Assembly (NCBI GenBank): GCA_018296165.2
Contig: JACKQL020000038.1
Coordinates: forward strand, 248,001-312,000
DNA from: Termitomyces sp. T153
Taxonomy: Eukaryota > Basidiomycota > Agaricomycetes > Agaricales > Lyophyllaceae
Length of the DNA stretch: 64,000 nucleotides
Direction: 5' to 3'
In this document: piece by piece, positions 4,725 to 64,000 of the stretch
Numbering within the stretch: the stretch's first letter is position 1
Layout: each line of letters starts with the position of its first letter
Position numbers and translations under genes: made by a program
Notes under the pieces: model-generated
Seen by the model: only the letters and a program-made list of their open reading frames with translations
Database searches by the model: none
What the model was told of the DNA's origin: nothing

Positions 4725-4739
4725 TGACTTGACTCCACT

Positions 4740-10957: not shown

Positions 10958-11063
10958 AGAACTCTGTGGTGTTTAGTCCTGGTGGGGAAGTGATGGGTAG
11001 TGGCTCAGAGGTTCCTTGTGGCTATGAGGGGCTTCCAGACCAGTTTTAGAAGACTTGTTCTGC

Positions 11064-19049: not shown

Positions 19050-20311
19050 TGATGTTCTCCTATGCTGCCTAGCTGCCATGCAGGGAAAACAAAAGAAAGC
19101 CTAAACACAAGCAACCAGATAAGGTAGCTGGCAATAGGAAGTAATGGGGGCAAGTCAGTAAATGTCCCAGAAAACAAGAGCTAATGGATGAATGGGTTTT
19201 GTAGGAGACAAGTGAGAAATGTTGCTATTGCTAGCCTAACTCACTAGACAATAATGCAGGGTTGCTAGCAGAAATCACTCAGAAGAGAGGAAGGAAATAA
19301 GTTGGTAAAGAGGTGGACGGAGTGATTGGAAACAATGGAGTTGGTAGGAAAGCAAAAGTTGTTAAGAAAGAGGGATAAAAGAATAGGGATGCAAAACAAG
19401 TCACTAATAACTAGGGTGACAAGGAAGATTGCTAAGGAGGGTAAGGGCCTAGTAACAGGGGGGAGATGGGAGAAGGGGTAAGTGAAATTGGTAAGAGTGG
19501 GAGAACAAATGCAAACTGGTTGCTAGCCATAGTTGCTAGCATTGCTAAGTTGCAGCACACTAAATAGTACCCACAGTTGGTACCCATGCTAAATCAAATA
19601 CAAGGTCATCAAGACTTGTTGCTAAGTTGTTAACAATGATGAGAAAGAGTGATCAGAAGAGAGCTGAAGCCTAAGAGCTGAAAAATACTAAGGAGAGGAC
19701 AATACTCTGATGGATTCTCTGTTCTGTTGCTGTATGTACAGGCAGTATTATCTATACAAGTATAGTATTCAGAAAGGAAAGTTGGTCATTGCCAGCAATG
19801 GCATCTGCCAAAGTCTCCATAATACATACTGAATGTCAGTATGGTAACCAAGTGTATGTATGCAATGTCAAAAAGATGTATAATAGGTGTCAGTAAGAAG
19901 AAAAAGCATACCTAACATCAATATCTGAAGTGTAGATGCTGTTCAGCTATATTTGTAAGCAAGACAAGAGAAATGTTGAGTAAGGGGTTACATGGTCTTT
20001 AATATCCATTTTGAGAAGAAGTATTGTTGTTGCTAAGTAATGTTGCTAGCAATTGTTGCTAAGGAAAGGTCTCAACCTTATCATTCTAGATCCAAAGGCT
20101 AGACTCAACATGATGAGGTTCATGATCCAGCAGTCTTGTGATCACTAAAATCCTGTGCAATGGCTACATTGTTCCAGACCTTGGGGCTAGACCACACATG
20201 ATAATATCATGTGACTTGTGCATAACCCATGCTATGTCCACATCAGATGCTGCCCAGATAAGATAGTCAGAGATATCAGTAATGGTGCTCAGCAACAAGT
20301 AGGTCTTATCA
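19050..20311 (-). repeat. Solo LTR-A splitting copia-2
   Basis: About 1.26 kb, same family as 6905-7996: left end TGATGTTCTCCTATGC, right end GCTCAGCAACAAG...CTTATCA. It sits between the copia-2 gag (right) and zinc knuckle (left). No exact target duplication was found. Confidence 0.75.
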
Positions 20312-21060
20312 ATGAGTATGAGTGCTTGCCTTGATAGCAAGAGCAGTGTTGACAGCAGGTGATTTGGAGAAGTTAGCAAGGCTATCAATGGTTTGGAACA
20401 GTTTCCTGATGTCAGCAGACCTATAGGATGCCTCCTTGGTGGCATCAGAGAGACTGCAAGATACCTACATTTGAATGGCCTCAAAGGACTTGTTGTTGAT
20501 TGAGTTAAGGAGAGCTATGCATTTGAGAAGTACTTTGTCAATGGCCCCAATGGTAAATGCCCGATCAATTAGTTCGCAAATCTTGCGGGTGGTATTTTCA
20601 ATTGGCTCCGAAACGGGCACGTAGGTAGAAAGTGGTTTGCGGATCAAAGCCACTTGTTTTACAGGCCCCTCACACTGAGCTCTCACCTTCAATGCATCGT
20701 AGCATTGTTTTGCCGTGCCGTCAGTGTCAAGGTCTTCCTGTTCAGCCTCGGATACAGCGGCGCGTATTATGCCAATGATGAGACCATTGTTGCTTTGCCA
20801 ATTGGCATGAGCGACGGGCTCCGTAGTGACATCTGGTGCAGAGATGAACCACTCAGGCTTGGAATCGGGGGCGAATATATATTGGTCCAGGCCGGTCTGC
20901 TGCAAGAATATTTTGAGTTTCCTGGACTATACAGTGAACTCCCCGGTAGTTCGGTCGAAAGGGGTCTCGGAGGCGGGCCAGTGAGCATTTAGCCTGACTG
21001 GTCATATGCGAGGGTAGGCCGCGTCAGTGGCCAGGTTCACGGTACCAAGAGGAACAGTTC
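20312..21060 (-). pseudogene. Copia-2 gag (N-terminal part)
   Basis: Minus-strand frame 20465-20905 (146 codons) has the look of copia gag (CYDALKVRAQCEGPVKQVAL). Upstream, after one TAG, the frame continues as LNAHWPASETPFDR. The piece from about 20,540 rightwards keeps normal CpG; the rest of the element has almost none. Confidence 0.65.
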
Positions 21061-41949: not shown

Positions 41950-42464
41950 TGATGTGCTCCTATGCCACCTAGTGCCATGCAGGAAACCTACAAGGAGGGC
42001 CTAACACTAGTCACTAGATAGGGTAGCTGGCAGTAGGAAGTTAATAGATGAGGGCAAATCAGTAACTGTCCCAGAGAACTAGAGTGAATGGGATGTGTGT
42101 GGAGTGTGAAGTGAAAAGAGTTGCTATCACTAGCCTAAGTTGCTAGACAGTAATGGAGAGTCACTAGTGAGAGAAAGGAAAACAAATGGAGATGAAAGAG
42201 TCACCAAGCAAAAGCAAACTGAGTAGCAGTGAAAGGGGATTTGGGTAGAGAAATGGGAGAGTGACAATAAAAAGACTGAAACAGAGGACAAATGCAAAAC
42301 TAGTTGCTAGCCATAGTTGCTAGCATTGCTAAGTCAAGAATAACACTAAGGGCACCCACAGTTGGTACTACATGAAGTCATAATTGAGTTGGCAAGACTT
42401 ATTGCTAAGTCATTGTCAATGAAGAAAGGGAGAGAGGCAAAGTGAAATCTCAAGCTGATGAGCT

Positions 42465-42508
<44 letters not shown>

Positions 42509-43100
42509 TGGGCTCTGTTTGTTTAATGATAGTTCCCTGGTTGTACAGTGGTTACAGTATTTATACTGTTTGTAAGTGTAGTATGGGAAAGTAACTAATA
42601 GTTGCCGCTAGTCATAACATCTGCCAAAGTGTTTATGATACATACAAGGTGTCAATCTGTAACCAAGTGAAAATATAAGCAAAGTTGATGTGATGCATAA
42701 AGGGCAATTAATCTCAAGAAAAGAGCAAGTCCAATGTCAATACCTGAAGTGTAAATGCCATTCAAGTAGGTTTGTAAGCTCAACAAGAAAAATGATAAGT
42801 AAGAAATCACACAACTGTCAATATGTCCATTTTTAGTGAGAGGCTGTGTTGCTGCCAGGAAAGTCACTAAGAAAGGTCTTGACCTTGTGGTTCTAGACCT
42901 AAAGTCCAGACTCCATGTGATATTGCTTGTGATTGATAAGTCTTGTGGTCGCTAAAATCCTGTGCAAAGGCTATGTCAATCTAGACCTTGGGGTTAGGCC
43001 TCACATGCTGAGTGTTGTGACTTGTGCCATGTCAAAATAGTCAGCTGCTGTACAGTCCTAAATGCCAAAAATGGTGCTCAGCAACAAGTGGGTCTTATCA
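41950..43100 (-). repeat. Solo LTR-A in copia-1 integrase
   Basis: 1,151 bp, TGATGTGC to CTTATCA. 4-bp TCAG on both sides (41946-41949 and 43101-43104) looks like a target duplication. Copia-1 integrase continues on the other side. Confidence 0.8.
42467..42506. repeat. (AG)n microsatellite
   Basis: About 20 AG units inside the solo LTR-A; other LTR-A copies lack it. Confidence 0.95.
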
Positions 43101-44863: not shown

Positions 44864-45761
44864 TGATGTGCTCCTATGCTGCCTAGCTGCTGTGCAGGAA
44901 ACCAAAAAGTAGACCTAAACACTGGCAACCAGATAGGGTAGCTGGCAATAGGAAGTAATGGGAGCAAGTCAGTAACCATCCCAGGAAGCAAGAGCTAATA
45001 GATGTGAAGGGAGATGGAGGAGTCAAGTGAGAAATGTTGCTATCACTAGCCTAAGTTGCTAGACAGTAACAAAAGGTTGCTAAGTTGCCACATAATGGAA
45101 GGAAAAAGAGGTGGAGACCAAAGAGTAGCAAATGAAAGTTGCCAAGAAAAGGGAACTAAGCAATAGAAAAGGAGGTGGGAAACAGGAAATAAGTGAAGTT
45201 AATATAAACTGGTGGACAAATGCAAACTAGTTGCTAGCCACAGTTGCTAGCATTGCTAAGTCACAAAACACTAAGAGTACCTGCAGTTGGCACCAACACT
45301 AGATCAAGTATGAGGTTGTCAAGACTTGTTGCTAAGTTGTTAACAATGACAAGAGAGATCAATCAGAGAAGTCTGAAGCTGGTAAGCTGAGGTCTACTGG
45401 GGGAGGAACAATACTCTGATTTTTTTGTCTTTATGTACAGGCAGTATTTATACTGTTTGTAGGTATAGTATTTAGAAAGGAAGTATTAGTCACCGCCAGT
45501 GATAGCATCTGCCAACATGTCCCTGATACATACTGGATGTCAGTATGGTAACCAAGTATTTGTATGCAATGTTGACAAGATGCATAATAAATGTCAGTAA
45601 TAATAAAAGAGCATACCTAACATCAATATCTGAAGTGTAGACACTGTTCAGGTATGTTTGTAAGCAAGACAAGAAAATTGATAAGTAAGAGGTCACATGG
45701 CCTTCAATATACCTGTTTTTGAGAAGAAGTATTGTTGTTGCTAGGTAATGTTGCTAGTGAT

Positions 45762-46710
45762 TGTCAGGTTCCGCTGACGATGGGGGCTCAGCTACACTGG
45801 CAAGTCCTTACTAGGCAGACGCAATGTCCTGTGCTTATAACCAAGCATCCGGGATTGGCATGGAGGGACTTGCAAGGGGGAGCTAGGGGGCAGTTCAAGC
45901 AAGTCCCAAGTGGTTCGGGGGCATCTAAGACCAAGTATATTAGTCATCAAACCTGGACAGGTGCCAGAACAAGTTTGTGGGCATGCAAATAGAATGCAGG
46001 GTAAGCAGAGGCTTCACAGCTGATGGGGGCAGAGCCGGATTTTGATGGGAGATCACCAAGACAAGAGGGGTTCCTGGGCCGAATGGGGAGTGAGGTCCGG
46101 GGTTGTTGTAAGAATGTTTGGGTTGTAGCATGCATGCGGAGTTCATACTGATGTTGGAGATGAAAGGAACTTAGGAAGACAAAGGAAATATACACAGTTG
46201 AGACGAGATGGAGATAAGGCGAGACGAGACAGAGAAAAGAGATAGATTTGAAACTAAAACTAGAGACAGTGATGAGACAAAAGACAAGAGATAGGAAACT
46301 GGTAAATGCAATATCAAGACTAAAGTACTAGGGGTTATTCTATGGCTTATATACCTACTACTGGGCAGCTCTGGAGGGCAGAGGATATGGCGGTGGGCTC
46401 GACAGAACTGTGCAGAGTCGACAGTTGTCAGGTGCAATCTTGGAGTGGGCCACAGTGACATTCTGATGGGATCAGTTGGAAAGTGGATCATTCTGGGGTT
46501 GGGAGAAGCCTTGGGAGTCCAGGGGAATTCAGGGGATGTATCAACTGCTGCAGAGAAGGCGTTGGAGTTGATCAAGGAGCCATTGGGGTTTGCCGAGGAA
46601 GTGTTGGAGTTGCCTGAAGTGGGTGCGGAGGGTGGGCAAGGGTTGGGGAGTTTGGCAGAGCATTGGGGGGGCTGGGGGCAGTGTCAGGGTCTAGAGAGCG
46701 GGTTGTGACA
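45762..46710 (-). repeat. Gypsy-C 3' LTR
   Basis: 949 bp. On the minus strand GAAGGAGAGGTGA (46711-46723), a polypurine tract, directly precedes it. Confidence 0.92.
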
Positions 46711-47172
46711 TCACCTCTCCTTCAGCGTTGAGACCCTTGAGACGTGGGGCACAGTTTGGGGATTAGTGGGGCATGGGAATCAAAGTCAAGCAATATTGAT
46801 CAGACTGCAGTAGTGGCAGTGGCATGGGGAATGAAGTCGAAGCATGGCTGCCACTCCTCAGGGGGTTCTTTCCTAGTCATTGAAAAGGATCAGACATACT
46901 CTGGGGTTCCCAAACTTTCCCAATGTTGTCTTCTGCATATTCTCCAGCAGCGTCCCCATCCCCATCGGCACATACCTTGACTTCTTCCTTGGAGGACTCT
47001 GAGGGTTGGCGAGACCATAGGCGGGTGCAGGCAATGTACTATAGTCATAAGTACTGTCTCTTGCTCGTCGTGGCCATTGTGCTTGAATAAGTCCTGTCAG
47101 AGTTGTCAGCGGTGGTGGCGGGCCCCTTGGGGCTTTCATCGGGGGGAGGCTCCAGCGCAGTCGGTGGGGGAA

Positions 47173-48615
47173 ATGGTTCTCACTTCTTGTTCCAGGTCTG
47201 GTATTGTCCCCAGGGTGGTGTGCCCCATCCCTATGGGGTCAAGAGTCACGCAGGTGGACATGATACTAGAGTACTTTGCAGAGGCTGCGGGGCGAGCAAG
47301 AGGTCCCCCGACATTAGAGTGGTGTCAGGTAGTGGCCCCAGTGCATCATTGGCATGTCCCTTCCCTATCAAGCTAACCCACGTTTCTAGTGCGCGTCCTG
47401 TACCTGGCAGGGTGAACAGTGCAAGTTTGAGGAGCCTGTGCTGGGAGTGTGGCGGGACATGTCAGTGTGTCTCCCATGTCACCTGTGGCACGAGAAGTGC
47501 TCTGTTACTCTGAATTGGCATGCCACTTGCATTGCGGCAGAGCAGGGGTGAGATTGCGAGTGGGTTGCAGCGCAGTTGGAGGAGGGTTGGAGGGGTAGGG
47601 TCTCAGGGAGGGGTTCCAGGGTAGAGGGGGGAGTTGGCATGGGGTGGCCCCCAATGAAGGTTGGGCCCCCACGGGGTGGGCAGAGGGAGGGGGCTCCCGC
47701 AATGTGCAACAAGGGTAAATGGAGGGCGTCCCCCTCACCAGAGGTGGGGCCTAGCAAGCGGACATGGGGGGAGCCAGCGATGGTGGACCCTCCAGGTCCC
47801 ATGGTGTATTCCCCGACTTCTGAGGCCTTGGTTGAGCAGTCTGCGGGAGGGTCATGGTCGGTTGCCAAGGCTTTCCTGTGGCATTGGGCAGAGGAGTTGG
47901 AGAGGTTGTTGGCCACATGCAGGGAGGAAGTTTGTAGGGTGGGGGAGGAGAGGAACAGGCTTCGGAGGAAACTGGACAAGGCTTGGAAGGAACAGGACTT
48001 GGCGCGTAGGAATAAAGATATTGCTGTGGGGACTGCCACGGAGCAACTGTTGCAGCTTCAAGAGCTGCGAGTGCACGTGAGGCCATTGGAGGCACAGGCG
48101 GAGGCAGCAGGGCAACGATTGGAGGGGTTGGGGACGTGGGGGACTCAGCAGGGGTCCAGTGTGGAGGTGACCCAAGTGATGGTGGAGAGGGCACAGCAGT
48201 GGGAAGAGTGGCTTGCCAATGAGGTGGCCTTGGGGCAGTGGGGAGTGCTCCATAAGTGCTCCCTTCATCTCCCATTTACTACAAGCTGATATTTGATTCT
48301 GCAGACTGGGCCAGGGAGCATCACATCCTCCTCAATAGAGTGTCAGCAGCGCTGGGGTCTATCCATGATGGGTTGGCAAGGATGCCCAGGGATCTCCCAC
48401 CAGAGTTGGGGCAGGGGGTCATGCAGATGGGGCATCTGCTGGCGGGACATCAGTGGAGGGTGACGGCGGACCCTGGAGTGTGGTGGGAGGTGGCGATGGA
48501 CGTGGCGGAGCTGCTCCCAGGGCATTCCAAAGTTCTGGCAATGGTAGTAGCGCAGCTGGAGGTGGATCTGGTGGGGAGGATAGCGGAGGTGGATTTGGAG
48601 GGGGAGGGGGAATAG
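47173..48615 (+). pseudogene. Antisense gene in gypsy-C: Zn2Cys6-type cluster plus coiled coil
   Basis: Lies on the plus strand, opposite to gag-pol, between the pol end and the 3' LTR. An intron 47329-47389 (GT-AG, CTAAC branch, 61 nt) joins LEWCQ in frame to CASCTWQGEQC. Downstream comes VCLPCHLWHEKC, giving C-x2-C-x6-C-x15-C-x2-C-x6-C, the spacing of a fungal Zn2Cys6 binuclear cluster except for a long middle loop. One TGA (47549-47551) follows. Then a Gly/Pro-rich segment and a heptad-like Glu/Arg/Leu-rich region (47,880-48,250; AEELERLLATCREEV, EERNRLRRKLDKAWKEQDLA). A last exon 48305-48615 (GLARMPRDLPPELGQG) needs removal of 48252-48304, whose donor is now ATAAGT. The 5' start is uncertain. 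Function unknown; DNA binding and dimerisation are suggested by the two modules (inference). Confidence 0.65.
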
Positions 48616-48779
48616 GGGCTTTCTGGATTCCAGTGTCTTGTTGCCCCACGCTCCCCTATTTCTATATTTTGTAATTGTAGCCTTGTTGATATTGGACTCC
48701 CTGCACTTCTGCTGAGCGTGAGAAGTTTTCAGAATGAGTAAGGGGCAAAGTAAGTGAAAACATGTAAGGGGGGTACTTG

Positions 48780-50380
48780 TGGGAGTTGAATCCCTGATAA
48801 ATCCAGAGGCGGGGGTTATGCCCACTGATGCCATCTGCGCTTGCTAGTCCTGGGGGTCCTGGGGCTTGGTGGGGTGTTGTCAATGGAAGTCCCAGAGTTT
48901 GTTGGGGGCTCTGTCAAGGTTTTTTTGGGGCTCCCACATGTTGTCCTCAGGTCCGTAGCCCTTCCAGCAGACTAAGTACTGGGGTTGTCTGCAGACCAAG
49001 TGGGAGTCAAGGATCTGGTCAACCTTGTAGTGGTACTTGTCCTCAACCTTGATGGGGGGTGGTCAGCTGGAGCGCTGGCCAGAGAAGGGGTCTGGGGCAT
49101 GTTTTTTGAGGAGTCAAACATGGAACACAGGGTGGAGGCCTTTCAAGCCTGGAGGTAGGTCAAGTTTATAGGCGTGCGTGGAAACCTTCTGGAGGACTTT
49201 GAAGGAACTGAGGTGTTTGTGGTCTAATTTGATGGAGGGCCTCCAGGTCTTGAGGTTGCATTGATCGAGCCAAACCAAGCTGCTGGGGGGCCAGTTGGGG
49301 GTGGGGTCATGTCAGGTGTCGGCATGTTTGGAGTAGGCTTGATGGTGGTGTTGATTTCGTCCCAGAGGAATTGGTGAAGGGATTGGAGGTCCTCAGCAAC
49401 TTTGTAGGCAGCGTGGGATGGGATGTCCTTTAGGGACAGGGTGAGTTGAGAGTTGTAGCCTTTGTTGGCATAGAAGGGGGAGACTTCAGTGGTGGAGTGG
49501 GGTGTGTTGTTGTAGGTGAATTTGGCAAGGGGGAGTTCTGCACACCAGTCGTTCTGTAAATAGTTAATGTAAAGGCAGAGGTACTGCTCCAGCATCTGGT
49601 TCACTCGTTCTGTTTGTCTGTCAGTCTCTGGGTGATAGGCAGTGGAGAGGCTGGTTTTGATCTTGAGTGCCCTGCATAGCAATTGCCAAAAGTGGGATAT
49701 GAACAGGGGTCCACAGTTGGAGACGATGTCGTCTGGGAGTCCATGCTTGGAGAATATGTATTCAAGGAATAGTTTGGCAAACTCCAGAGCATTGTCAGTA
49801 GTGTGGCAGGGGATGAAGAGGGCTTGCTTGGTAAGGCGGCAAATGACAACAAGGATCCTGTTGAAACCTTTGGAGTCAGGGAGTTTGACAATATGATCCA
49901 TTGATAGGGAGGACTAGGGGTGGCGACTGATGGGGAGGGGTTTCAATAGTCTGTGGAGGTGGTGGCGGGGCACCTTGGCCCGGAGGCAAGGTTTGCAGGC
50001 CCTTATATATTGCATGATGTCCTTCTTCATTCCTGGCCAAAAGTAAGTCTGGGAGATGAGTTGAAGGGTCTTACAAATTCCTGGGTGCCCCTGGAACTTA
50101 TGGTCATGGTGCTGCCGGAGTATGTCGAGGCAGATGGACTTGTGGTCTGGAGCGTAAATTTGTCCACTCCAGAGCAGGAGGCGGTGGTCTGGAGACAGCA
50201 AAAAGGGGTTTCTAGCGCTCAACTTGTCAGGGTTGTTGCGGGGGTCGTGCTGGGTGAAGAAGGAGTTCAGGGGTGAATTTCTGATTTGCTGGAGGATTCC
50301 TTCTTCATTTAAAATCAGTATGGCATGTAGATGTTTGGGGGGGATTACCACTCAATGGTTGAATGCATTCCATTTGGCTT
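48780..50380 (-). pseudogene. Gypsy-C integrase and chromodomain
   Basis: Minus strand: HHCC zinc region in 49914-50351 (HDHKFQGHPG, CKPCLRAK), DDE core in 49224-49901 (MDHIVKLPDSKGF; YHPETDRQTERVNQ), chromodomain near 48,900-49,060 ([26 protein letters not shown]). The second catalytic position reads VSNCGP where the family has SD(R)GP: Asp has become Asn. A TGA lies just before the chromodomain. Confidence 0.88.
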
Positions 50381-50429
50381 TGAATGACTTCTTCAGGTAC
50401 ACATCAGATCTTCAAGTGAGGGCATTGGG

Positions 50430-51970
50430 CTTTGCACTGAGTCACCCGGGGCGGTAGTGGATGGTGAAGTCATACTCTGAGAGGATTTTAGACCATTGGG
50501 CTTGGCAGCGGCTGAGCTGTTTTGTGGTCATGAAGTATTGCAGGTTGTTGTGGTTGGAGTATACTTGGATGTGGTGTGGGGACCCCTCGAGGTAGGCCCA
50601 CCACTGATGGAAGGCTTTGACAATTGTGAGGAGTTCTTTGTTGTAGATGTCATAGTTGAGTTCCACTGGGATCATCAATCAGGTGTAGAAGGTGACGGAA
50701 CGGAGATCTTTGCCCCCCAAGTCTGACTGGGAGAGTATTCTGGCGATAGCATAGTCGGAGGTGTTGCATTCAAGCATGATCAGCAGGGAGGGGTCGAAAT
50801 GGCAGAGGACTGGAGTGGAGGTGAAGGCCCTCTTCAGGAGGAGAAATATGCTCTAGCACTTGCTGTCCCAATCCCAAGGGGTGTCCTTCCACATGAGTCA
50901 GTTGAGGGGTTTGGTGATCCTGGAGTAGTTGTTGATGAAACAGCAATAAAAGTTAGCAAACCCCAGGAATGACTGTACCTCCTTGACGTTCTGTGGCAGG
51001 GGCCAATTGAGTACTGCATTGACCTTGGCGGGGTCCATGCGCATGCTGTCAGGGGTGACAATGACTCTGAGATATTCAACCTCCGTTGTGTGGAAGGAGC
51101 ATTTCTTGGGTTTGGCATGAAGGTGGTACTCTCAGAGTCATTCTAAAACGCGGTGGACATGCTCTGGATGCTCTGTTGGTGAATTTGAGTAGATCAGGAT
51201 GTTGTCCAGGTATACAATAACAAAAACATCATTCATGTTGTGGAAGATATCATTCATGAAGTACTGAAAAGTGGTGGGGGAGTTAGTCATTCCAAAGGGC
51301 ATTACGAGGTACTCAAAGAGGCTATAGCAGGTGCAAAAGGTGGTCTTCCATTTATGTCCCAGAGCAATCTGGACGTTGTTGTAGCCAGAGTGGAGGTCTA
51401 TCTTCATGTAAATCTTGGCACTGTGGAGACAATCAATGAGGTCTCCAATCAAGGGGAGGGGATACCGATTCTTTTTGGTGACTTTGTTGAGTCCCCAATA
51501 ATCCACACAGAGTCGGAGTGACCTGTCCTTCTTCTTGGTGAACAGAACCAGAGCGCCAGTGGCGGAGATTGATGGGCGTATGAAGCTCTTGCTGAGCATG
51601 TCGTTGAGGTATTCCTTCAAGGCTCAGAGCTCAATCTCAGACATGTTGTAGATCTTGCCAAATGGGAGTGAGGTGCCTTCTTCGAGGTTGATCTTGTGGT
51701 TGTAGGAGCGATGCAGGGGAAGTTCTTTGGCACTCCCTTCAGAGAACACATCAGCAAACTCATGATACTCTAGAGGAACTACTTTGGATAGGATCTGTTC
51801 CTCTGTCTTGCTCTCTGGTATGGTGGTCTCTGTGTAGAGGTGCTCCTTGGGTAGGGCTGGCGTGATTTGTAACTGGAAGGCAGGGGTGCTGTCTTGTAGA
51901 AGGTGTGCAAAGGGGATGGTGCCAATGATTTTAATGTCAAGGTTTCTGGAGTTGACAGAGTTGGACATCA
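50430..51970 (-). pseudogene. Gypsy-C reverse transcriptase and RNase H
   Basis: Minus strand: pre-RT linker 51624-51968 (YHEFADVFSEGSAKELPLHR), RT 51138-51620 ([48 protein letters not shown]), RNase H near 50,442-50,830 (NYDIYNKELLTIVKAFHQW; YFMTTKQLSRCQAQW). The active-site box is YLDN instead of YLDD. Stops separate the pieces. Confidence 0.88.
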
Positions 51971-52069
51971 GAGTGGTAGTGGATGAGTCCGGAGTGGTGG
52001 CAGAGTTGGTCGGGGACTTTGAGCATTGCTGGTTGGGGTACCACGGGCCTTTGTATTGATTCCGGGGTA

Positions 52070-53223
52070 TGTTGGGAGGCAGCTGTCATAATGTGATTGA
52101 GGGTGACCAAGGTGGAGTGGTGTCTCCTTCTTTGTTGGGGTTGTCATTGGAGGTTGAGGGACTCTGGGTCGCTCTGGAGGTACTGGTGCTGGGGTGGGAG
52201 ACGTTGGAGTCCAAGATAGACTGGAGGCAGAGGGGGATGGCGGCCACTAAACTCACTTTGGGGCCAGGAAATTGCATGGTGAGGTTCTTTCAGTCAATGT
52301 TGGGGTTGATGTCTTGCAGCCACGGGAGTCTGAGCACGATTGGAGTCGGTGGAGGTAATTGGGTGATGAGGAGCTGGGCCTGAAACTGCAGGTTGTTGTC
52401 AAGGGTGAGGGTGTTGTTGTGGTATTGAGTGATCCTTGTTGTGGCAGGGCTTCCATCAAAGAGTTGGAGCTTGAGGAGTTTGTCAAGGTTGTTGTGCTAG
52501 AGGCCAAGCTGATTACTGACAAAGGTGCCAGAGGCGCCGCTGTCAACAAGGGCGGGGAATACCTTGGAAGAGTCATCAAGTCAGACATTGATGATGAACA
52601 ACCATGTGGATCTAGAGCGGAGCTGCGAGGGAGTTCAGGGGTGGTTGATTGTGGTCTCGGAGTTCTTGGAGGAGGGTGAGACATTGAAAGGTACCAGCCT
52701 GGAGTCAGTGGGGTTGTCCCGGTCAAGGTGGAGGGTGAGGCTGGGCCAGTCGATGCAGGGGTTGGTGGAATGGAGCCATGAGAATCCTAAGATGATGGGG
52801 GCAGAGGGGTGTAATTTTGTGATAAGTAGTCGGAGTTCTTGCTGTCATCCATTGGCAAAGGTCATGGTCATTTCCAGGCAGTGTGTGATGTCTCCCATGG
52901 GGGTAGGGTCTCCATCAAAAAGTTTGAGGGGGATTGAGGTGGGGAGGCGTCGGAGGGGGTGGGGAGCGAGCGCCACCAGGGATTCATTGATGAAGTTGTT
53001 GGTGGTGCCACTGTTGACTAGTGTGGGGATGGGGTTGTTGGTGAAGAGAAGAGTGGTGCAGTGGAGGAGGTTGGTGGATGAGTGGGAGGGGAGGTGTACT
53101 GGGGGGCTGTCTGGGGTGAGTATCATTGCGTGCAGGAGTGTGGCCAGGGCAGAGAAGACATCGTGGTCTGGTCTGCAGTCTAGTGCATCTTCAAGACCTA
53201 AACCACTAACTCGTTTTCTGTAA
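52070..53223 (-). pseudogene. Gypsy-C tandem retropepsin-like domains
   Basis: Two aspartic-protease-like units follow each other on the minus strand. The first (about 53,040 to 52,740) has LVNSGTTNNFINES and ends PIILGFSWLHSTNPCIDW. The second (about 52,565 to 52,260) has VFPALVDSGASGTF and ends PIVLRLPWLQDINPNIDW. Each has the start box and the hydrophobic end box of a retropepsin. In the first the catalytic DSGA is NSGT, explained by two CG-to-CA changes; in the second DSGA is intact. Confidence 0.75.
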
Positions 53224-53229
53224 ACTGGT

Positions 53230-54200
53230 AGTTACAGTCTTCTCTGTCGATTGTCCACACGGCACATCCCATCACCTGTTGTTTAGGACAACTGCGAATA
53301 AAGTGTCCCTGCTCACCATATAGGATGCACGTGCCCTCCTTCCATTGTTTCTTCTGCATTTCCTCTGGCATGTAAATCCACAGGCTATCCCAAATCCTGT
53401 TTGCGCATAAGGCTTCTTGATCATTGGTGGGGTCTGGAATGCTGTTGTGGTCGTCAGGGTTGGTGTCCAGGGGTTCTGGAGTTTCATGGAGGTTGGTGGC
53501 ATTGAGCTGGGCCGGCAGACATTGTCCCGGGGGTCAATTGGTGCTGGTAATTCCTTGGCCTGAGGGAAAACAGGGTGCAGGGTTGGTGGGATTAGCAGGG
53601 ATTGAGCATCAAACGCTGTTGGTTGCTCTGGCCTGCCAGTTGGTGTTACTGGAGGCATTCCAGGGGGTCCGGGGTGCCATGTTTTTGCTGCGATCTTCCC
53701 AGTAATGCTGGTCGACCTGGGTAATGAGCGCTTTGTACCCGTCATAGGTGGTTTGCTTGGGTGCGAGGCAAAGGACATCCTTGATCCATTGAGGCAGGGT
53801 GCAATGGAGGGCAAATCGGAGAGCTTTGTAGTTCCAGCTGGTCTCATAGGCTTCCCATTCAAACCATACAATAAACGTTGTGAAGCGTTTGTTGTTGCAC
53901 ATTCAGAGGTTGAAGAGATTTTCCTCCACCTCCACTATGGTGTCAAAGACGCCAAACTTACTTGAGAATTCCTGGGTGAAAGCAAGCCAATTGGAGAGCA
54001 CGGGGTTGTTGGGGTTAAACCAGAGTAGTGCAGTGTAATGATCAAAAGTGATACCCTGTAAATATGATGCAGCGAAGACCACTTGTGAGCTCTCAAGTTG
54101 GAAGGTAATTGGCTTAGCTTGGAACATAGTCAGACACTGGGTTAGAAAGATTTGCCACTTCTGGGGGTTGTGGCTGGTGAAGGGTTCAGGTTTCTGAATG
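53230..54200 (-). pseudogene. Gypsy-C gag capsid and zinc knuckle
   Basis: Minus strand: capsid-type SYLQGITFDHYTALLWFNP and FTQEFSSKFGVFDTI, VRFERE-like VWFEWEAYETSWNY, LRFALHCTLPQWIKDVL, then a knuckle remnant CILYGEQGHFIRSC near 53,310 in which the second Cys is Tyr. Established knowledge: this is the usual retrotransposon gag domain of basidiomycete gypsy elements. Confidence 0.85.
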
Positions 54201-54219
54201 TCAAGCTTATCCTCCAGGC

Positions 54220-55699
54220 CAGTGCATCATGGGTATCGTCCTGTGGATTTTGAGCTCAGGGTGGGGGTCTGGCATTGTAGTAGTAATAGTAGTTGTTCCC
54301 ATTTCCGCACTGGGGGGGGAAGTTGTCCATCGCCGGGCCCCATCCCCCAGGGGGTCCGCCATTGGATGGCCCTCTGCTGGGGGTTAACCTGCATTGCCCA
54401 GGGTGGGCCCCAGGGCCCATTAAGGGGGTCCTCTGGGGGTGGGGAGTCCAAAATAATTGGCGTTGGTGGGAGGGTTAGGCATCGGAGTGGGCGGGGGACG
54501 AGGATGGTTGGTAGAAAAGGGTAGTCGGGGCACCCCAGGACCCATGGGCTGTTGCGGGGGGACTGGGGCATTGGGATGGGGCAGAGGGGCATTGACATGA
54601 GGGGCGCGGAGGTTGAAGTGGGGGGGTCGGTCTTGTAGAGGTCCATTGCATGGGGCATGCTTGTCGGCAGAGTTACCAGGCTCATCAATGTAGGAGAGAG
54701 TCCAGTTGTTGTCGTCAACATGTGGGGGCGGCCGTTGGGAGTGGGGTTCAGAGACAGCGGGCTGGTCCCAGGTTCAGAAGGCACTGGGGACAGAGTTGGC
54801 CCAGGGGTGAGCAGAGAGGGCCAAGGTATGGGTGGCTGGTTGGTCAAACAATCCCCCCACGGGGTTAAGGTTCCTCAAGATGCTGAAGGCCGCATTGAGT
54901 TCTTCCTGCTGATGGGAAATGAAAGGTGGGGCTTTGTTTTGTGTTCCAATGGGCTCCTTGCATTGCACATGGAAGGAGCGGGCAGGGTCTAGAGGGTCTT
55001 CAAAGGGGCAGGGGTTCAGGCTGGTGTGGATTTCTTTGACCAATGCATGGAGCTTGTTCCGTAAGTTATCGTCAATGCCCAGGGTGTCTTGTATAGTCTC
55101 TGGGAGGTTCCCTTGCAGATAGCGCTTGTGGAAGTCAAGGAGTCGATCCGCCCAGACTTCCAGAGTTGCAGAGGTGTCAGAGTAACCTAGGTTGGTGAGG
55201 AGGGTGTGGGTGCATCTTGCAAACTCCATAGGAGAGAGGCAGAGGAAGCAGAGGACTTCATTGCATTGTTGGGCATAGGCTTCAACCCTTTGCTGCCTGG
55301 GAGAAGGAGGAGCTTGAGTAGGGAAAGGCATATGAGGGGGTGAATGATTATCTGTAGGCCCTAGAGGGGTTGGGGCTGCAGCGGGGACTGGGTATGCATA
55401 ATAGTGGGCAGGGAGAAGGTAGGTGGGGTTAGGGGGTGCTGTGGAGTATCCTCTGGGGTACATATAGGGATTGTTGCTATTGGCAGAGAGTGTGGGAGGG
55501 CGGTGCCAGCCCAGAGGTATTCCTTGGCTGATGGAGGGGGCGTAGAATGCCTGGTTGGGGTCAGGAGTCCAGTGACAAGGGACATACTGATCTGTGGAGG
55601 GGCCTGGGTAGAACAGGGCATAGGGATTTTCTGGTACTGGTCGACCATAGATGTCGGTTAGGTAGCTGGCAGGGTTGTATATGGGGTTATATGCAGACA
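54220..55699 (-). pseudogene. Gypsy-C gag N-terminal extension
   Basis: Starts at MSAYNPIYNPASYL right inside the 5' LTR. About 140 residues rich in Tyr, Pro and Asn, then an alpha-helical segment (VEAYAQQCNEVLCFLCLSPM; LEVWADRLLDFHKRYLQGNL; NKLHALVKEIHTSLNPCPFE). A Pro-rich linker broken by frameshifts leads to the capsid. I do not recognise the helical segment. Confidence 0.65.
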
Positions 55700-55732
55700 T
55701 TGAGAACAGGGTAAGGGGGAGTCTTGATATTA

Positions 55733-56681
55733 TGTCAGGTTCCACTGATGACAGGGGCTCAGCTACACTGGCGAGTCCTTACTAGGCGGACATGATGTCC
55801 TGCACTTATAACCAAGCGTCTGGGATTGGCGTGGAGGGACTTGCGAGGGGGAGCTAGGGGGCGGTTTGAGCAAGTCTGGAGTGGTTTGGGGGCATCTAAG
55901 ACCAAGTATATTAGTCGTCAAACCTGGACGGGCACTGGAACAAGTTTGTGGGTGCGCAAATAGAATGTGGGGTAATCAGAGGCTTTGCGGCTGATGGGGG
56001 CAGAGCTGGAGTTTGACAGGAGATCACCAAGACAAGAGGGGTTCCTGGACCAAATGGAGAGTGAGGTCCAGGGTTGTCATAAGAATGTTCAGGTTGTAGC
56101 ATGTGTGCAGAGTTCGTACTGATGTTGGAGATGAAAGGAACTTAGGAAGACAAAGGAAATATACACAGTTGAGACGAGATGGAGACAAGGCGAGACGAGA
56201 CAGAGAAAAGAGATAGATTTGAAACTAAAACTAGAGACAGTGATGAGACAAAAGACAAGAGATAGGAAACTGGTAAATGCAATATCAAGACTAAAGTACT
56301 AGGGGTTATTCTATGGCTTATATACCTACTACTGGGCAGCTCTGGAGGGCAGAGGATATGGTGGTGGGCTTGACAGAACTGCGTGGAGTCGACAGTTGTC
56401 AGGTGCAATCTTGGAGCAGGCCATGGTGACATTCTGATGGGATCAGTTAGAAGGCAGATTGTTCCAGGGTCGGGGGAAGCCTTGGGAGTCCAGGGGAATT
56501 CAGGAGATGTATCAACTGCTGCGGAGAAGGCGTCAGAGTTGATTAAGGAGCCATCAGGGTTTGCTAAGGAAGTGTCAGAGTTGCCTGAAGTGGGCGCAGA
56601 GGGTGGGCAAGGGTTGGGGAGTTTGGTGGAGCATTGGGGGGGCTGGGGATGGTGTTGGGGTCTAGGGAGTGGGTCGTGACA
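55733..56681 (-). repeat. Gypsy-C 5' LTR
   Basis: 949 bp, same length as the 3' LTR. Target duplication GTGAT follows at 56682-56686. Confidence 0.92.
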
Positions 56682-56942
56682 GTGATCATTGCTAAGGAAG
56701 GTCATGACCTTATTGTTCTAGATCCAAAGGCTAGATTCTATGTGATGAGGCTTCTGATCCAGAAGTCTTATAGTTGCTAGGATCTTGTGCAACAGCTATG
56801 TTGTTCCAGACCTTGGGGCCAGATCCCACATGATAAAGTCATGTGACTTATATGTACTTGTGCTGTGTTCATATCAGGTGCTGCCCAGATAAGATAGTCT
56901 GCAATATCAGTAACAGTGCCCAGTGACAGTTGGGTCTTATCA

Positions 56943-57330
56943 CCACCACAATGAAAAGCTTGTCCCAGTCAGATATAATCTGTGTCATGAGCCCATTCTT
57001 GCAATACCACTCATTGAACAGTACTAAAGTCATCTGTGCTGCTAAATCTTTTGAGTGAATACTTCTCAGATATACTTGCATATCCATCAAGTCAGTCATT
57101 GTCATAATTGTGTCTTTACCATTCTCTTCCAGCAGGGGCCCAATAAAGTTGATTCCCACACTAACATGGTGGGAGCCATGTGTGGCCAATTGGACTGCAC
57201 TGCTGTTGTGCATCCCCAAAAAAGATGGCTCCTTGCAGACAGCACTAGATGCACCCATCCAGATCAAGTTGTAGGTTGGTATGGTTGTCAATGGTGGAAC
57301 TATATAGGTATCAAAACCAAGCACCTAAAT
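56943..57330 (-). pseudogene. Gypsy-D integrase, upstream half
   Basis: Minus strand: VGINFIGPLLEENGKDTIMT, LVLFNEWYCKNGLMTQIISD, WDKLFIVV, i.e. the first two catalytic regions of the DDE core (D in NFIG; SDWDKLF). Continues at 44,863. The stretch 57,331-57,736 shows only broken frames, probably upstream gypsy-D pol. Confidence 0.75.
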
Positions 57331-57736
57331 GATGAGACTGCCAAGGGCTATCTCCTCATCCATCAAAACACAACTCACAATGAAGAATTGTCAAGCCAAA
57401 GCAGTGTCCACCAGAAAGTCCTATTGACTCTAGACAAGTTCTGATCAGCAGCTGGATCAAAATTCCAGCTGATGGCAAATGACCTAATCTGCCAATTTTC
57501 AAGTCCATCTGCCATACCTAGCTCTGCTCACCTCTCTGGTGCTGATTCTATTGTGCTGTCACACTTAGAAGAACAATTCCCTGAGTGGTGATAGCCCAAG
57601 ATCATCCTGAACTGTGCCTGACACTCAATCACCCACATGGCCTCCATGAATGCTTGACAAGGCCATCAATCCTTCCAATCAATGAGACCCTTGCACACAC
57701 TGCTCGTTCTCAACAATTGTTTCTCTATCTGCACAT

Positions 57737-58877
57737 TGATAAGGACCACTTGTCACTGAGCACCATTACTAACATCTTTGACTATCTTATCTGGGCAGTG
57801 TTTAATGTGAACACAACACAATTATGCACAAGTCATGCAACATTATCATGTGTGGTCTAGCCCCAAGGTCTGGAATGACATAGCCATTGCATGGGATCCT
57901 AGTGACCATCAGACTTCTGGATCATGAGCCTCATCACATGGAATCTAGCTTTTGGATCTAGAACAATAAGGTTGACACCTTTCCTTAGCAACAACTCCAG
58001 TATGTATCATGGACACTTTAGCAGACACCATTGCTGGCAGTGACTATCTTTGCTTTCAGGGGTCACATGGCCTTTATATATCTGTTTTTGAGAAGAAGTA
58101 TTGTTGTCACTAAGTAATGTTGCTAGCAATTGTTGATAAGGAAAGGTCTCAACCTTATTGTATTAGATCCAAAAGCTAGATCCCACATGATGAGGCTTGT
58201 GATCCAGAAGTCTCATGGTCACTAGGATCCTGTGCCATGGCTATGTTGTTTCTGACCTTGAGGCTAGATCCCATGTCATGAGGTCACATGACTTATACAT
58301 ACTTGTGTTGTGTCCACATCAGGTGCTGCCTAGATAAGATAGTCTGAGATGTTAGTAATGGTGCTCAACAACAGTTGGATCTTATCAGTGGGTGTGGCTA
58401 GCAACCAGTTTGCATTTGTTTTCCCACTCCTACCAATTTCACTTACTCCTTCTCCCATCCTCCCCCTGTTGCCAGGCCCTTTCTGTCCTTAGCAATCTTC
58501 CTTGTCACCCTAGTTCTTAGCAACTTGTTTTGCATCCCTGTCATTTTTACCCTCCTTCTTTAACAACTTTTGCTTTCCTACCCACTCCATTATTTCCAAT
58601 TGCTTAGTCCACTCCTTTTACTGACTTATTTCCTTCCTCTCTTCTTAGACATCTTTTGCTAGCAATCTTGCATTATTGTCTGGTGAGTCAGGCTAGCAAT
58701 AGCAACATTTTTCACTTGTCTCCTACATCTTCCATTCATCCATTAGCTCTTGTTTTCTGGGACATTTACCAACTTGCCCCTATTACTTCTGATTGCCAGC
58801 TACCCCATCTAGTTGCTTGTGTTTAGGCTTTCTTCTGTTATCCCTGCATAGCAGCTAGGCAGCATAGGAGCACATCA
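57737..58877 (+). repeat. LTR-A, plus orientation, with an inverted internal segment
   Basis: Starts TGATAAGGACC at 57737 and ends GGAGCACATCA at 58877. 57737-58060 is the first third of the LTR in plus orientation; 58061-58387 is about the same third in minus orientation (ends CTTATCA); 58388-58877 is the last part in plus orientation again. The first two parts form an inverted repeat with arms of about 320 bp. Confidence 0.65.
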
Positions 58878-59686
58878 TTTTGGAGCCCACTGCAAGAGGT
58901 ATTTAGGTAACCATTCTACCAGAAACCAGAGCACAAGCAAAATGTTGCTTAGAACCTTTTGCCGAACTCTTGAATCATACCCCTAGTTCTTCCTCAACTA
59001 CTCACTTGTGACCCCTTGCTGACAAAAGCAAAATACTTAGTGACTTTCCAGGAGCTTTGGTGGAAAGCTTTCTCAGGGCTCCTCTATCACCATTATCAGC
59101 AACTGACTCATTAATCTTCTTTCCTGAAGCACATTCCATTCCTGCTTCACCTACCAACACCCAGAACCCCCTTTGACAGCTACAACCCACAATTGCTAAC
59201 ATGAGTAACAATCCTGTTGCTTGCCATGCTCAAATGCCTCTTTGTAACAACAAAACTGCACCCAAGTGGGATGAAAGTCACCTCAGAAAGCTCCTCCAGT
59301 ACTTCAAGGAATTGGAGTATCTTTTTTCTGACTGTGGTATTGCTGAAGATACCCAGAAAAAGGCATATGCAGCTCACTATGTCTCTTATGACATTGCAGA
59401 AACTTGCATTGACTTATCAGAATTTGGTGACAATATAACCATTGGCAACAATGCACCCAGACCTTATACTTATCAGGAATGGAAAGTAGCAGTACTCAAA
59501 TTGTACTCTGGTGCCAATGCTAGCACACATTACAACCTTAGTGACCTTGAGTGGCTTGTCAATCAGACCTTCAACAGCAGACTTGCAACTTTAGGACAGT
59601 TCTCTGATTATTATCATGACTTGCAATGTATTGCTAGGTGGCTCCTCACTAATGGCAAACTTTGGTGGCTAAGCAATGAGTGCTAA
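58878..59686 (+). pseudogene. Gypsy-A primer-binding site, leader and gag (N-terminal part)
   Basis: TTTTGGAGCCCAC right after the LTR has the TGG start of a primer-binding site. A leader shared with 8,000-8,378 follows. Gag frame from 59,201 is open for 161 codons: PKWDESHLRKLLQYFKELEY, YVSYDIAETCIDLSEFGD, YTYQEWKVAVLKLYSGAN. This is the usual N-terminal part of a basidiomycete gypsy gag. It stops at 59,686, where it runs into a pol fragment of opposite orientation. Confidence 0.7.
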
Positions 59687-61406: not shown

Positions 61407-61780
61407 TGTCAGGGGACTGGACTTCCATTTCCAACCTCTGCAACTCATTCCAGCACCTCCACAGCTTGTTCAATGTCTCCAGGGCTCCTTCTAGAATCCT
61501 GGAGTACTCCAGATAACTGTGGAGTTCTCTGTATTACCTCAGCAGTCATTGCCCTAGGGTTAGGAGTTGCTCTGGTCATCTGTACAGTAGTTCCCATGCC
61601 TCCACCACCTGCTGATGCACTGCACCAAGCAGCAGGGATCCTTAGACTTGTTCTCTTTGGATTCCTCTCTGCTAGGTGATTAGTTACTGATTGTATCATT
61701 GTCTACTCCACTAATATACTTTTGATTCCCCTCTGCTAGCTGCATGACTCCAATCTGCTGCCCCAGAGGTTGCCCTTACA
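61407..61780 (+). repeat. Gypsy-1 copy 2, 5' LTR
   Basis: 374 bp, TGTCAGG to CCCTTACA, the reverse complement type of the LTRs at 2385 and 11064. It interrupts the RNase H fragment. The left target copy would be TTAAT (61402-61406); the right end is outside the window. Confidence 0.88.
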
Positions 61781-61876
61781 GCAAAACAAGTCTCCTAAAA
61801 CTGGTCTGGAAGCCCCTCATAGCTGCAAGGAACCTCTGAGCTGCTACCCATCACTTCCCCACCAGGACTAAACACC

Positions 61877-63106
61877 ATGGAGTTCTATGTCTCAGCTTGC
61901 CAACCCAGACACACTCTTGGAGGCCCTGGCTCTGCAGGACTTGCCTGGACTTGCTTGCTTCACCTAGAAACCCAGGTGCAACTAACACAATCATTTCTCA
62001 CCCACCATACTACCAAACTCTCTACCCTCCATCAAACAACCAATCTTATCTCCCAATCACTCCAGGCATTGCTTAAATGCCTACCCCCTAACTCTGCCCC
62101 TTCTATGGCTGCAGAACTAGCCCCAACTGCATCTGCACCCATCTCCACAGCTCCAGTGACCTTACAGCCACAGATTCTGCATCCTGTGCTACCAGACATG
62201 TACAATGGTGCCTGCTCTGGCAGGGAGCAATTTCTGCAGTCCTGCCTCACCTATATCCACCTTAGCAGAGACACCTTTGACTCCAACACAGTGAAAATAG
62301 CCTGGGTGCTGTCATACATAAAGACTGGACATGCCTCTACTTATGCACTACAAGTCTTCCACTGCTCTGGAGGTGTTGGAAGCTTTCCAGACTGGGCTGC
62401 CTTTGAGAAGGACTTCCATGCAGAGTTTTTTCCATTAGACCACACCAAGACTGCAGCCTTGATGCTATGCAATAGGGAGCAGTACAGACAAGGGAAGCAT
62501 ACACTGGATAAGTACATTGACTCATTCTGGGCTCTGGTGAAGCAGGCTGCTTACCCCAATGGCCTCTAACTATGCCTTACTTTCCAGGATGGCTTGCACC
62601 CTGCACTAGTGGAATACATTAACAATCTGGTGGAGGGTTCTGATGATGAAAAGATTGCATTGTAGTACAAGGTGGCCCAGGTCCAATGGCAACTCATGGA
62701 GATCTGGAGGGAGCTCCACTGCCCCCATTCTGCACTGCACCCAGCTCTGATCAGCAATCTCTGCTACTCTGCACCTGCTCATCCAATGCTGGCCTTTACT
62801 CCAGCTATCCCTGCAGCATGCCCCCTGCCACTGGGAATTCCCATGAATGTTTATGCTGCCAGGCAGCTCTGTGCTGCCCTGCTGCTGTGCCAGAGATGCC
62901 AGAAGCCTGGGAACTTTGCATGGCACTGCCCCCTGGGCCTGGAGGTATGCTACCTTTCCATGGCAAAGCAGGAGGAACTCCTCCTACAGCTACTAGCCAC
63001 AAAGGATGCTGCCAGAGCTCCATCACTGGATGAGCCTACACCAGAGTTGACCCCAGAGGAGATCAGTGTGTGCACCTCACCTCCAGAGCTGGAGGAGAAT
63101 TTTTAG
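61877..63106 (+). pseudogene. Gypsy-1 copy 2 gag
   Basis: Plus strand, open 61877-62569 (230 codons; HLETQVQLTQSFLTHHTTKL; REQYRQGKHTLDKYIDSFWA), then two stops, then 62672-63106 with zinc knuckle CQRCQKPGNFAWHC, where the first His of CCHC (GH) is Asn. Ends with an acidic tail (PTPELTPEEISV). Less decayed than the copy at 9.4-11 kb. Confidence 0.85.
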
Positions 63107-63339
63107 TTGAGCAATGGATGAGGTGTATGCCTCCATTGCTGGGTGCTAACAGGTTCTTATGTCTGTCAATAGAAAATGAAACTGCCTTTTCTGACACCCT
63201 TCATTCTGAGATAGAAGAACCTCAATGCCCCTCTTCAGACATACAAGCACTAACTCTGGAGCCTTGGCTGAGCTCCCCGACACCTCTGAAGGTCTGTCAG
63301 CATAGCTCCACTTGGGTGTGTTGAATGCTCTAACAGTAT

Positions 63340-64000
63340 GTGATGGCCTCTGCCATATCTGCCAACTCCCTGCACCTTGATGTGGAGATTGAGATGACAG
63401 ACACTCAGCAAACCTGTGGAGTCATAGCTCTTTTGGACAGCAGAGTGATGGGACTGTTCCTGGACTTGGAGTTTGTCAAATGCCATAGCCTGACCATGCA
63501 GCCCCTTCCCAAGCCCATTCCTATCTACAACATTGATGGAATGCCTAACAAAGCAGGCACCATCAACTCCATGGTTGATCTGGTCCTCCATTATTGGAAC
63601 CACATGGAGCACACCGCATTTGCTGTCACCAGCTTGGGAAGGCAGGACATGATCCTTAGTTTTACATGGCTCTAGGAGCACAACCTCAAGGTCAATTGGA
63701 CTAAAGGGGAGGTAACCATGAGCAGGAGCCCCTGGAAGTGTTCTGCATGTGCTACAGAGGACAGAGCAAAGTGCTGGATCCAAGTTTGGGAGCATGCAGC
63801 CATCCACACATGTCATGCCAGCCCTCTCTCCTTTGCAGATTTAGACCTCCTAGATCTCCTGCCTCTGGTGTTCCTTTGTAGAGAGGCCCTCTATGAGGAC
63901 AATTGGAGCAACAGTGGAGCCCCAGAGGAGGAGCACAGAGGGGAGTTTGGTGGCATATGTGAGCTGGAGCTCTCAGACAAAGTGGTAGAAGCAGGGGATT
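63340..64000 (+). pseudogene. Gypsy-1 copy 2 protease, runs off the window
   Basis: MMASAISANSLHLDVEIEM, then VIALLDSRVMGLFLDLEFVK: the protease box is DSR instead of DSG, a G-to-A change. RQDMILSFTWL is followed by a stop and the RT linker. RT would lie beyond 64,000. Confidence 0.8.

What the first reader, a model, noticed from the sequence alone, without database searches (positions are those of the whole stretch)
47173..48615. Spliced Zn2Cys6 plus coiled-coil gene on the antisense strand of a gypsy element
Between pol and the 3' LTR of gypsy-C, opposite to gag-pol, a frame crosses a clean 61-nt intron (47329-47389) and yields C-x2-C-x6-C-x15-C-x2-C-x6-C followed by a heptad-rich coiled coil. 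That is the modular plan of fungal binuclear-cluster transcription factors. Seen: cysteine spacing, intron signals, coil. Inferred: the element carries its own antisense regulator, perhaps acting on the LTR or on host genes. Antisense ORFs are known in some plant gypsy elements, but I know of no described Zn2Cys6 example.
Basis: partly seen in the sequence, partly recalled or inferred. Interest (0 to 1): 0.82.

Follow-up and report, generated by a model that had tools for sequence, protein, structure and literature searches.

The report
Antisense gene in fungal retrotransposon
A family of jumping elements, apparently from a termite-farmed mushroom, carries on the strand opposite to its replication genes a multi-exon gene for a cysteine-rich coiled-coil protein that selection has preserved, much as some retroviruses and plant elements carry backward genes.

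Summary
Sixty-seven distinct copies from the same genome show four exons and three short introns between pol and the 3' LTR, opposite to pol wherever pol was found. Intact copies encode about 514 residues. Introns sit at the same places in three subfamilies although their lengths differ, so only splicing keeps the frame. Between the two main subfamilies transversions fall on codon positions 1/2/3 as 26/21/84 of 508 codons, introns change at 20.5%, and dN/dS is 0.28. All 106 database homologs found are Termitomyces hypothetical proteins. The domain is not a standard Zn2Cys6: its halves look swapped and full proteins score below the Pfam cut-off. One non-autonomous element holds a (broken) copy of this gene alone between LTRs. 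The anatomy resembles HTLV-1 HBZ and antisense TRP28 genes of plant Retand elements. Best explanation: a self-encoded nuclear DNA-binding regulator made from the integrated element. Gene, strand, splicing and selection rest on sequence comparison; expression, zinc or DNA binding and target are inferred. The searches named found no description of it.

The parts
45757..45761 (.). target-site duplication GTGAT (repeated at 56682-56686)
45762..46710 (-). 3' LTR of the gypsy element
   Evidence: 89.9% to 55733-56681; outer ends checked
46711..46723 (-). polypurine-tract-like stretch beside the 3' LTR (pyrimidine-rich on +)
   Evidence: read by eye from the alignment
46770..46915 (+). conserved non-coding block 5' of the antisense gene with AATATT(G/A)ATCA; putative antisense promoter/5' UTR
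46923..47046 (+). exon 1 of the antisense gene (ATG at 46923)
47047..47100 (+). intron 1, 54 nt; donor reads AT in this copy
47101..47340 (+). exon 2; 240 bases against 239 in L053 and L069 (frame broken here)
47390..48251 (+). exon 3: cysteine domain, NLS-like stretch, coiled coil
47390..47500 (+). C-x2-C-x6-C-x15-C-x2-C-x6-C
47549..47551 (+). in-frame TGA of the window copy
48252..48304 (+). intron 3, 53 nt; donor reads AT in this copy
48305..48615 (+). exon 4: conserved helical C-terminal region, stop TAG
48847..49047 (-). C-terminal chromodomain part of pol
   Evidence: L009, coordinates converted; domain named on L069
49224..49913 (-). integrase (rve, 29.1 bits, below the 32.6 cut-off)
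51138..51623 (-). reverse transcriptase (RVT_1, 90.1 bits)
54774..55778 (-). open frame in the gag position, no Pfam match
55733..56681 (-). 5' LTR

Best explanation
The element carries a true protein-coding gene on the strand opposite to gag-pol. It is transcribed antisense from in or beside the 3' LTR of the integrated copy, spliced three times, and translated into a nuclear coiled-coil protein of about 514 residues with a cysteine cluster of zinc-cluster type whose halves are in swapped order. The protein most likely dimerises through the coil, binds DNA through the cluster and regulates transcription of the element, by feedback on the LTR or by countering silencing. Because the genomic RNA carries the introns in reverse complement, they are not spliced from it and survive reverse transcription. 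Shown by sequence comparison: gene, strand, place, introns, long-term selection, later decay of single copies. Inferred: transcription, zinc binding, nuclear entry, dimerisation, DNA binding, target and sign of the effect.
For: Pol lies opposite to the gene in 69 of 76 stretches, that is 60 of 67 distinct copies; 7 showed no pol, none showed pol on the same strand. Three introns at the same places in subfamilies A (21 copies), W (41) and T (5), usual lengths 51/49/51, 54/49/53 and 49/50/56, GT-AG ends apart from decayed ones. Nine of 67 copies have start, frame, no stop and all splice ends intact; seven of the nine are among ten copies fetched because their frame was open. A versus W (L069/L053): transversions 26/21/84 of 508 codons, introns 31 of 151, Fisher p = 5e-14 (positions 1+2 against 3); dN/dS 0.284 (95% 0.224-0.349, kappa 4), shifted forward frames 1.82 and 1.27. 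Seven of eight cysteines invariant in the five proteins of A2, the eighth in four. Conserved block 5' of the ATG. Gene models in strains J132, T112, Mn162 and T159_Od127; P0001 (J132_02857), compared by eye, lacks the residues of all three introns.
Against: No RNA or protein evidence. Zn_clus stays under its cut-off of 21 in the two full proteins scored (16.8 and 10.3); the T domain matches in neither order. In the 40-protein alignment A1 only C116 is invariant and C132 at 90% or more; the other cysteines are lost more often, in decayed copies or by gene models. The cysteine region is modelled poorly (pLDDT about 40-57). Constraint on T is weaker (omega 0.57). In exon 2 a reverse frame has slightly lower dN/dS (0.38) than the forward frame (0.41), though with stops. 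Some pairs within A give 0.36-0.37, so low values are not confined to old divergence. 58 of 67 copies are not intact by the census. No search for a binding site on the LTR was made.
Confidence: 0.55

Rival explanations
1. The antisense gene is real and selected, but its protein does not regulate transcription: it is an anti-silencing factor, or a nucleic-acid chaperone or particle component that helps the element in another way.
For: The cysteine cluster is not a standard Zn2Cys6; the coil and parts of the helical C-terminus are the best modelled parts; a non-autonomous element holds the gene alone, which suits any function that favours the element carrying it.
Against: NLS-like stretch and zinc-cluster-like spacing point to the nucleus and DNA; no match to a chaperone or silencing family in Pfam or NCBIfam, a prokaryote-centred library.
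Confidence: 0.3
2. A host gene was captured and rides as a passenger.
For: Spliced gene with short introns; zinc-cluster proteins are common host genes (21 Zn_clus matches in this genome).
Against: Three word-based protein searches found homologs only in Termitomyces, 106 distinct proteins; three diverged subfamilies keep it, so it is old in the element.
Confidence: 0.1
3. The conserved frame is a by-product of a sense-strand gene or of structure in the genomic RNA.
For: Reverse frames with aligned wobble positions also show low dN/dS in L069/L053: 0.38, 0.43 and 0.35 in exons 2, 3 and 4, in exon 2 slightly lower than the forward 0.41.
Against: Those reverse frames hold 1/1, 3/4 and 0/1 stops in L069/L053, the spliced forward frame none in either, and intron length changes would shift a reverse frame. 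Introns change fastest, so the RNA is not conserved as a whole.
Confidence: 0.03
4. Chance open frame in GC-rich DNA with chance cysteines.
For: The gene region is GC-rich (58-68% in the nine copies) and several frames are open.
Against: Codon-position test (p = 5e-14), shared introns, annotated homologs.
Confidence: 0.02

Closest known systems
HTLV-1 HBZ and the APH proteins of HTLV-2/3/4 (PMC10186651, passages read)
   Same: Antisense gene of a retroelement expressed from the 3' LTR with a spliced transcript; HBZ is a nuclear protein that lowers 5' LTR expression.
   Different: HBZ has a bZIP and the APH proteins none; here a cysteine cluster. Expression and effect are proven there, not here.
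Plant Retand (Ty3/gypsy) antisense TRP28 genes between pol and 3' LTR (PMC11963269, passages and Discussion read)
   Same: Same place and orientation, in 97% of clusters of recent elements, predicted DNA-binding, no similarity found outside elements; elements lacking usual domains were also recently active.
   Different: TRP28 domain (PF04195), non-chromovirus plant lineage; here a chromodomain element of a fungus and another protein. The parts read do not mention conserved introns or codon selection.
Steamer-like element-1 antisense ORF of a mussel (PMC10974842, passages read)
   Same: Antisense mRNA of an LTR retrotransposon with an ORF, 3' LTR proposed as promoter.
   Different: 67-residue ORF.
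Fungal Zn2Cys6 (Zn_clus, PF00172) transcription factors
   Same: Six cysteines in C-x2-C-x6-C halves, basic residues, coil after the cluster (general plan recalled).
   Different: Halves in the opposite order, x15 linker, a conserved cysteine on each side, sub-threshold scores for full proteins.

Membership tests
Zn2Cys6 binuclear cluster (PF00172) | Full protein reaches the Pfam gathering score of 21 bits | tested here: not met
   16.8 bits for the L069 protein read through introns 1 and 3, 10.3 for P0087; window piece no match. A 61-residue fragment of L069 reached 22.6, as two stretches.
Zn2Cys6 binuclear cluster (PF00172) | Two C-x2-C-x6-C halves in the order of the profile | tested here: not met
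   First half matches profile 13-35. Swapping halves: 22.6 to 31.6 bits (A), 18.2 to 25.3 (P0087), 10.4 to 19.3 (W, L053, both under the cut-off), T none either way. Swapped and native fragments also differ in trimming. Controls: three domains from this genome fell on swapping, 41.7 to 29.7, 40.3 to 27.0, 36.1 to 25.2, and one hand-typed canonical-like domain 40.7 to 28.0.
Zn2Cys6 binuclear cluster (PF00172) | Six cysteines conserved | tested here: inconclusive
   In five divergent proteins five of six are invariant and the sixth is lost in P0099 only. In the 40-protein alignment, which holds decayed copies and gene models, only one of the six reaches 90% (C132).
Zn2Cys6 binuclear cluster (PF00172) | Binds two zinc ions and DNA | not testable with these tools
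   needs purified protein
HBZ-like antisense regulator (works like) | Gene on the antisense strand next to the 3' LTR, spliced | tested here: met
   splicing inferred from conserved introns, not from RNA
HBZ-like antisense regulator (works like) | Expressed, nuclear, changes LTR transcription | not testable with these tools
   no RNA or cell data
Retand lineage | Non-chromovirus element with antisense TRP28 (PF04195) protein | tested here: not met
   pol has a chromodomain (PF00385, 62.3 bits) and the protein has no PF04195 match at E up to 1
Ty3/gypsy chromovirus | RT-RNaseH-integrase-chromodomain order | tested here: met
   RT_RNaseH, Integrase_H2C2, rve, SH3_Tf2-1, Chromo in order in L069; RVT_1 upstream in the window

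The most novel reading that the evidence does not exclude
A fungal retrotransposon lineage has evolved its own intron-bearing antisense transcription factor with a half-swapped zinc cluster, and small non-autonomous elements made of two LTRs and this gene alone have spread as mobile regulators of LTRs or of host genes in Termitomyces.
Probability: 0.28. Interest if true: 0.87.

Novelty: new variant of a known kind. Interest (0 to 1): 0.7.

Why it matters
Antisense accessory genes are known in deltaretroviruses and plant gypsy elements. A conserved, spliced, selected example in a fungal chromovirus suggests that this solution arose more than once, and it gives a natural test set (over a hundred matching copies in one genome, three subfamilies, with and without pol) for what such genes do. 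Introns that pass through an RNA-copied element are strong indirect evidence for antisense expression. If the cluster folds as guessed, it would be a half-swapped version of a very common fungal DNA-binding domain. It also explains a block of Termitomyces 'hypothetical proteins' as transposon genes.

Tried and rejected
ORF 48256-48615 as a separate gene: rejected, it is exon 4. Plain Zn_clus membership: rejected. Solved-structure look-up of the cysteine domain gave only E = 0.19-0.21 matches to PUT3 and CBF3 subunit B. NCBIfam gave nothing useful. The whole-protein AlphaFold model is poor outside the coil and parts of the C-terminus (mean pLDDT 55.6), so no fold search was made. Database searches found relatives in Termitomyces only: 98 of 98 rows, 65 of 65 (three new) and 6 of 6 (five new). 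The method needs shared 5-residue words and one search scored only 7992 candidates, so distant relatives may be missed. Paper searches: from listings none is about this gene, and one search found no paper with all its terms. PMC3248453 (fungal LTR elements; passages only) does not hold the word 'antisense' in its main text. Most subscription papers are not in the library.

Full report
What was checked. The window is G000:C38:248001-312000 of an unnamed 72.4-Mb genome in 307 contigs. The element runs from 45762 to 56681 on the minus strand, with 949-bp LTRs 89.9% identical and GTGAT on each side. Pol is on the minus strand (RT 51138-51623, integrase 49224-49913).

Other copies. Searching the same genome, the 56-residue cysteine piece gave 150 matches (150 of 878 candidates scored) and the 245-residue coil piece 151 (150 of 1461 scored), many with open frames of 299 or 421 residues. 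I held 76 stretches, 67 of them distinct copies: 21 of a subfamily A, which includes near-identical and so young copies, 41 of the window's subfamily W and 5 of a third, T. They are the best hits, ten copies chosen for open frames and five T copies, so proportions do not describe the genome.

Gene structure. In copy L069 the exons are 541-664, 716-954, 1004-1874 and 1926-2236; the introns of 51, 49 and 51 nt all begin GTGAGTG and end CAG; the product has 514 residues. W and T have introns at the same three places with usual lengths 54/49/53 and 49/50/56. Donors other than GT are mostly AT: in W, 17 of 40 at intron 1 and 23 of 40 at intron 3, against 1 of 41 at intron 2. At introns 1 and 3 the exon ends in C, so the donor sits in a CpG; I read this as CpG decay (inference). 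CpG observed/expected is 0.96 in L069 and 0.35 in the window copy. Nine of 67 copies are intact by start, frame, stops and splice ends; seven of the nine are among the ten picked for open frames. L053 of subfamily W has no stop and one AT donor.

The window copy. Exons 46923-47046, 47101-47340, 47390-48251, 48305-48615; introns 47047-47100, 47341-47389, 48252-48304. It has one extra base in exon 2, a TGA, and AT donors at introns 1 and 3, so it is a dead copy.

Place and orientation. A 677-residue pol query found pol opposite to the gene in 69 of 76 stretches (60 of 67 distinct copies) and on the same strand in none. Seven showed no pol: L033, L058 and the five T copies. In the window 212 bases lie between the 3' LTR and the start codon. 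The block between, about 46770-46915, differs less between A and W (5.3% transversions at L069 342-492) than LTR (11-17%) or introns (about 20%), and shares AATATT(G/A)ATCA in all 14 copies aligned (two more T copies, L080 and L081, were left out because too little upstream sequence was held). I take it as a candidate antisense promoter or 5' UTR; it could also be an element signal next to the polypurine tract.

Selection. A against W (L069/L053): transversions at codon positions 1/2/3 are 26/21/84 of 508 codons, introns 31 of 151 sites; Fisher p = 5e-14 for positions 1+2 against 3 and 5e-10 against introns. dN/dS is 0.205 with kappa 1 and 0.284 with kappa 4 (95% 0.224-0.349); forward frames shifted by one or two give 1.08-1.82. 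Among forward frames each exon is lowest in the one that splicing predicts, 0.19, 0.41, 0.28 and 0.23. Reverse frames with aligned wobble give 0.38, 0.43 and 0.35 in exons 2-4, in exon 2 slightly below the forward value, but hold 1/1, 3/4 and 0/1 stops. Within subfamilies transversions are nearly even: 3/3/4 for L053/L054; on average 2.1/1.8/3.0% in W and 2.7/2.5/2.8% in A over 400 sampled pairs each, self-pairs included. dN/dS within subfamilies is 0.69 for L053/L054 and L072/L073, yet 0.37 and 0.36 for L069/L078 and L069/L070 (kappa 4), so young copies also show some constraint or a mutation bias. Pol as positive control gives 8/4/26 transversions at 676, 677 and 676 sites for L069 against the window. 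Against T the constraint is weaker: L069/L079 106/66/132 of 476 codons, p = 4e-5 for positions 1+2 against 3 and 0.014 against introns, omega 0.57 (0.455-0.702). Transversions were used because CpG decay produces transitions.

The protein. Homologs: 98, 65 (three new) and 6 (five new), 106 distinct proteins, every row a Termitomyces hypothetical protein. P0001 (J132_02857), read by eye, lacks the residues of all three introns. A distant one, P0087 from strain T159_Od127, is 42-44% identical and keeps the six cysteines and one more on each side. In the 40-protein alignment with decayed copies and gene models most of the cysteines fall below 90%. The L069 product has an NLS-like stretch at 229-247 (motif recalled). 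The model of P0001 has a helix 272-368 of high confidence and a helical C-terminus; the cysteine region has pLDDT about 40-57.

The cysteine domain is not a plain Zn2Cys6. Zn_clus scores 16.8 bits for the L069 protein and 10.3 for P0087 (cut-off 21). The match falls on the second part of the profile, and in the PUT3 alignment each half pairs with the opposite half of PUT3, at insignificant E-values. Exchanging the halves on paper raised the score from 22.6 to 31.6 (L069 fragment), 18.2 to 25.3 (P0087) and 10.4 to 19.3 (L053), each then one continuous match; T matched in neither order. Native and swapped fragments were trimmed differently. Three host domains from the same genome fell when swapped (41.7 to 29.7, 40.3 to 27.0, 36.1 to 25.2), and so did a hand-typed canonical-like one (40.7 to 28.0). 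This suggests a half-swapped cluster; similar halves of independent origin are not excluded.

Gene-only elements. In T copy C15:890900-896700 two LTR stretches (1168-2208 and 4662-5550, 86-87% identical in two pieces) enclose 2.45 kb that hold the antisense gene; pol gave no match and gag only weak ones (E 0.12-0.20). A further LTR-like repeat lies beside it (151-1168, 70%), and no target duplication was checked. In T copy C75 no pol was found in a further 2.5 kb (best E 0.88), but a gag-like stretch was (43% over 58 residues, E 4e-7). The five T copies have 2 to 10 stops in the gene, 6 in the C15 copy.

Module exchange. Pol of A and W differs by 4-6% third-position transversions, the antisense gene by 16.5%, with the change near the end of pol. 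Gene plus LTR seem to have a different history from pol, by recombination or conversion, or evolve faster.

How it most likely works. An antisense transcript from the integrated copy is spliced and makes a nuclear dimeric protein that binds DNA and regulates the element. The argument that the introns persist because they are reversed in the genomic RNA is from general knowledge. HBZ is the best functional parallel (PMC10186651, passages), Retand TRP28 the best structural one (PMC11963269, passages and Discussion). It is a member of neither. Expression, zinc, DNA and target remain to be shown.

Noticed in passing
L085+L081+L086 (G000:C15:890900-896700): Non-autonomous element with two LTRs and only a (broken) copy of the antisense gene between them.
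   Followed up: partly
L069 2456-4407 against window about 48850-50800: Pol of subfamilies A and W is far closer than gene and LTR, which suggests exchange of modules between elements.
   Followed up: partly
window 46770-46915: Conserved non-coding block upstream of the antisense ATG; in the five A copies aligned it holds the perfect palindrome TTGATCAATATTGATCAA.
   Followed up: partly
contig starts such as G000:C10, C181, C241, C289: Gene matches lie about 1.65-1.85 kb from the start of several contigs, as if the assembly broke at the outer edge of the LTR.
   Followed up: no
window 6905-9394, 19479-20320, 41950-43100, 44864-45764, 56689-58954: Another set of dispersed repeats, about 65-88% identical, some next to the element.
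   Followed up: no
window 9392-11425 and 61419-63448: A 2-kb inverted duplicate at 86% identity that overlaps a frame at 61823-62569 which looks gag-like by eye.
   Followed up: no
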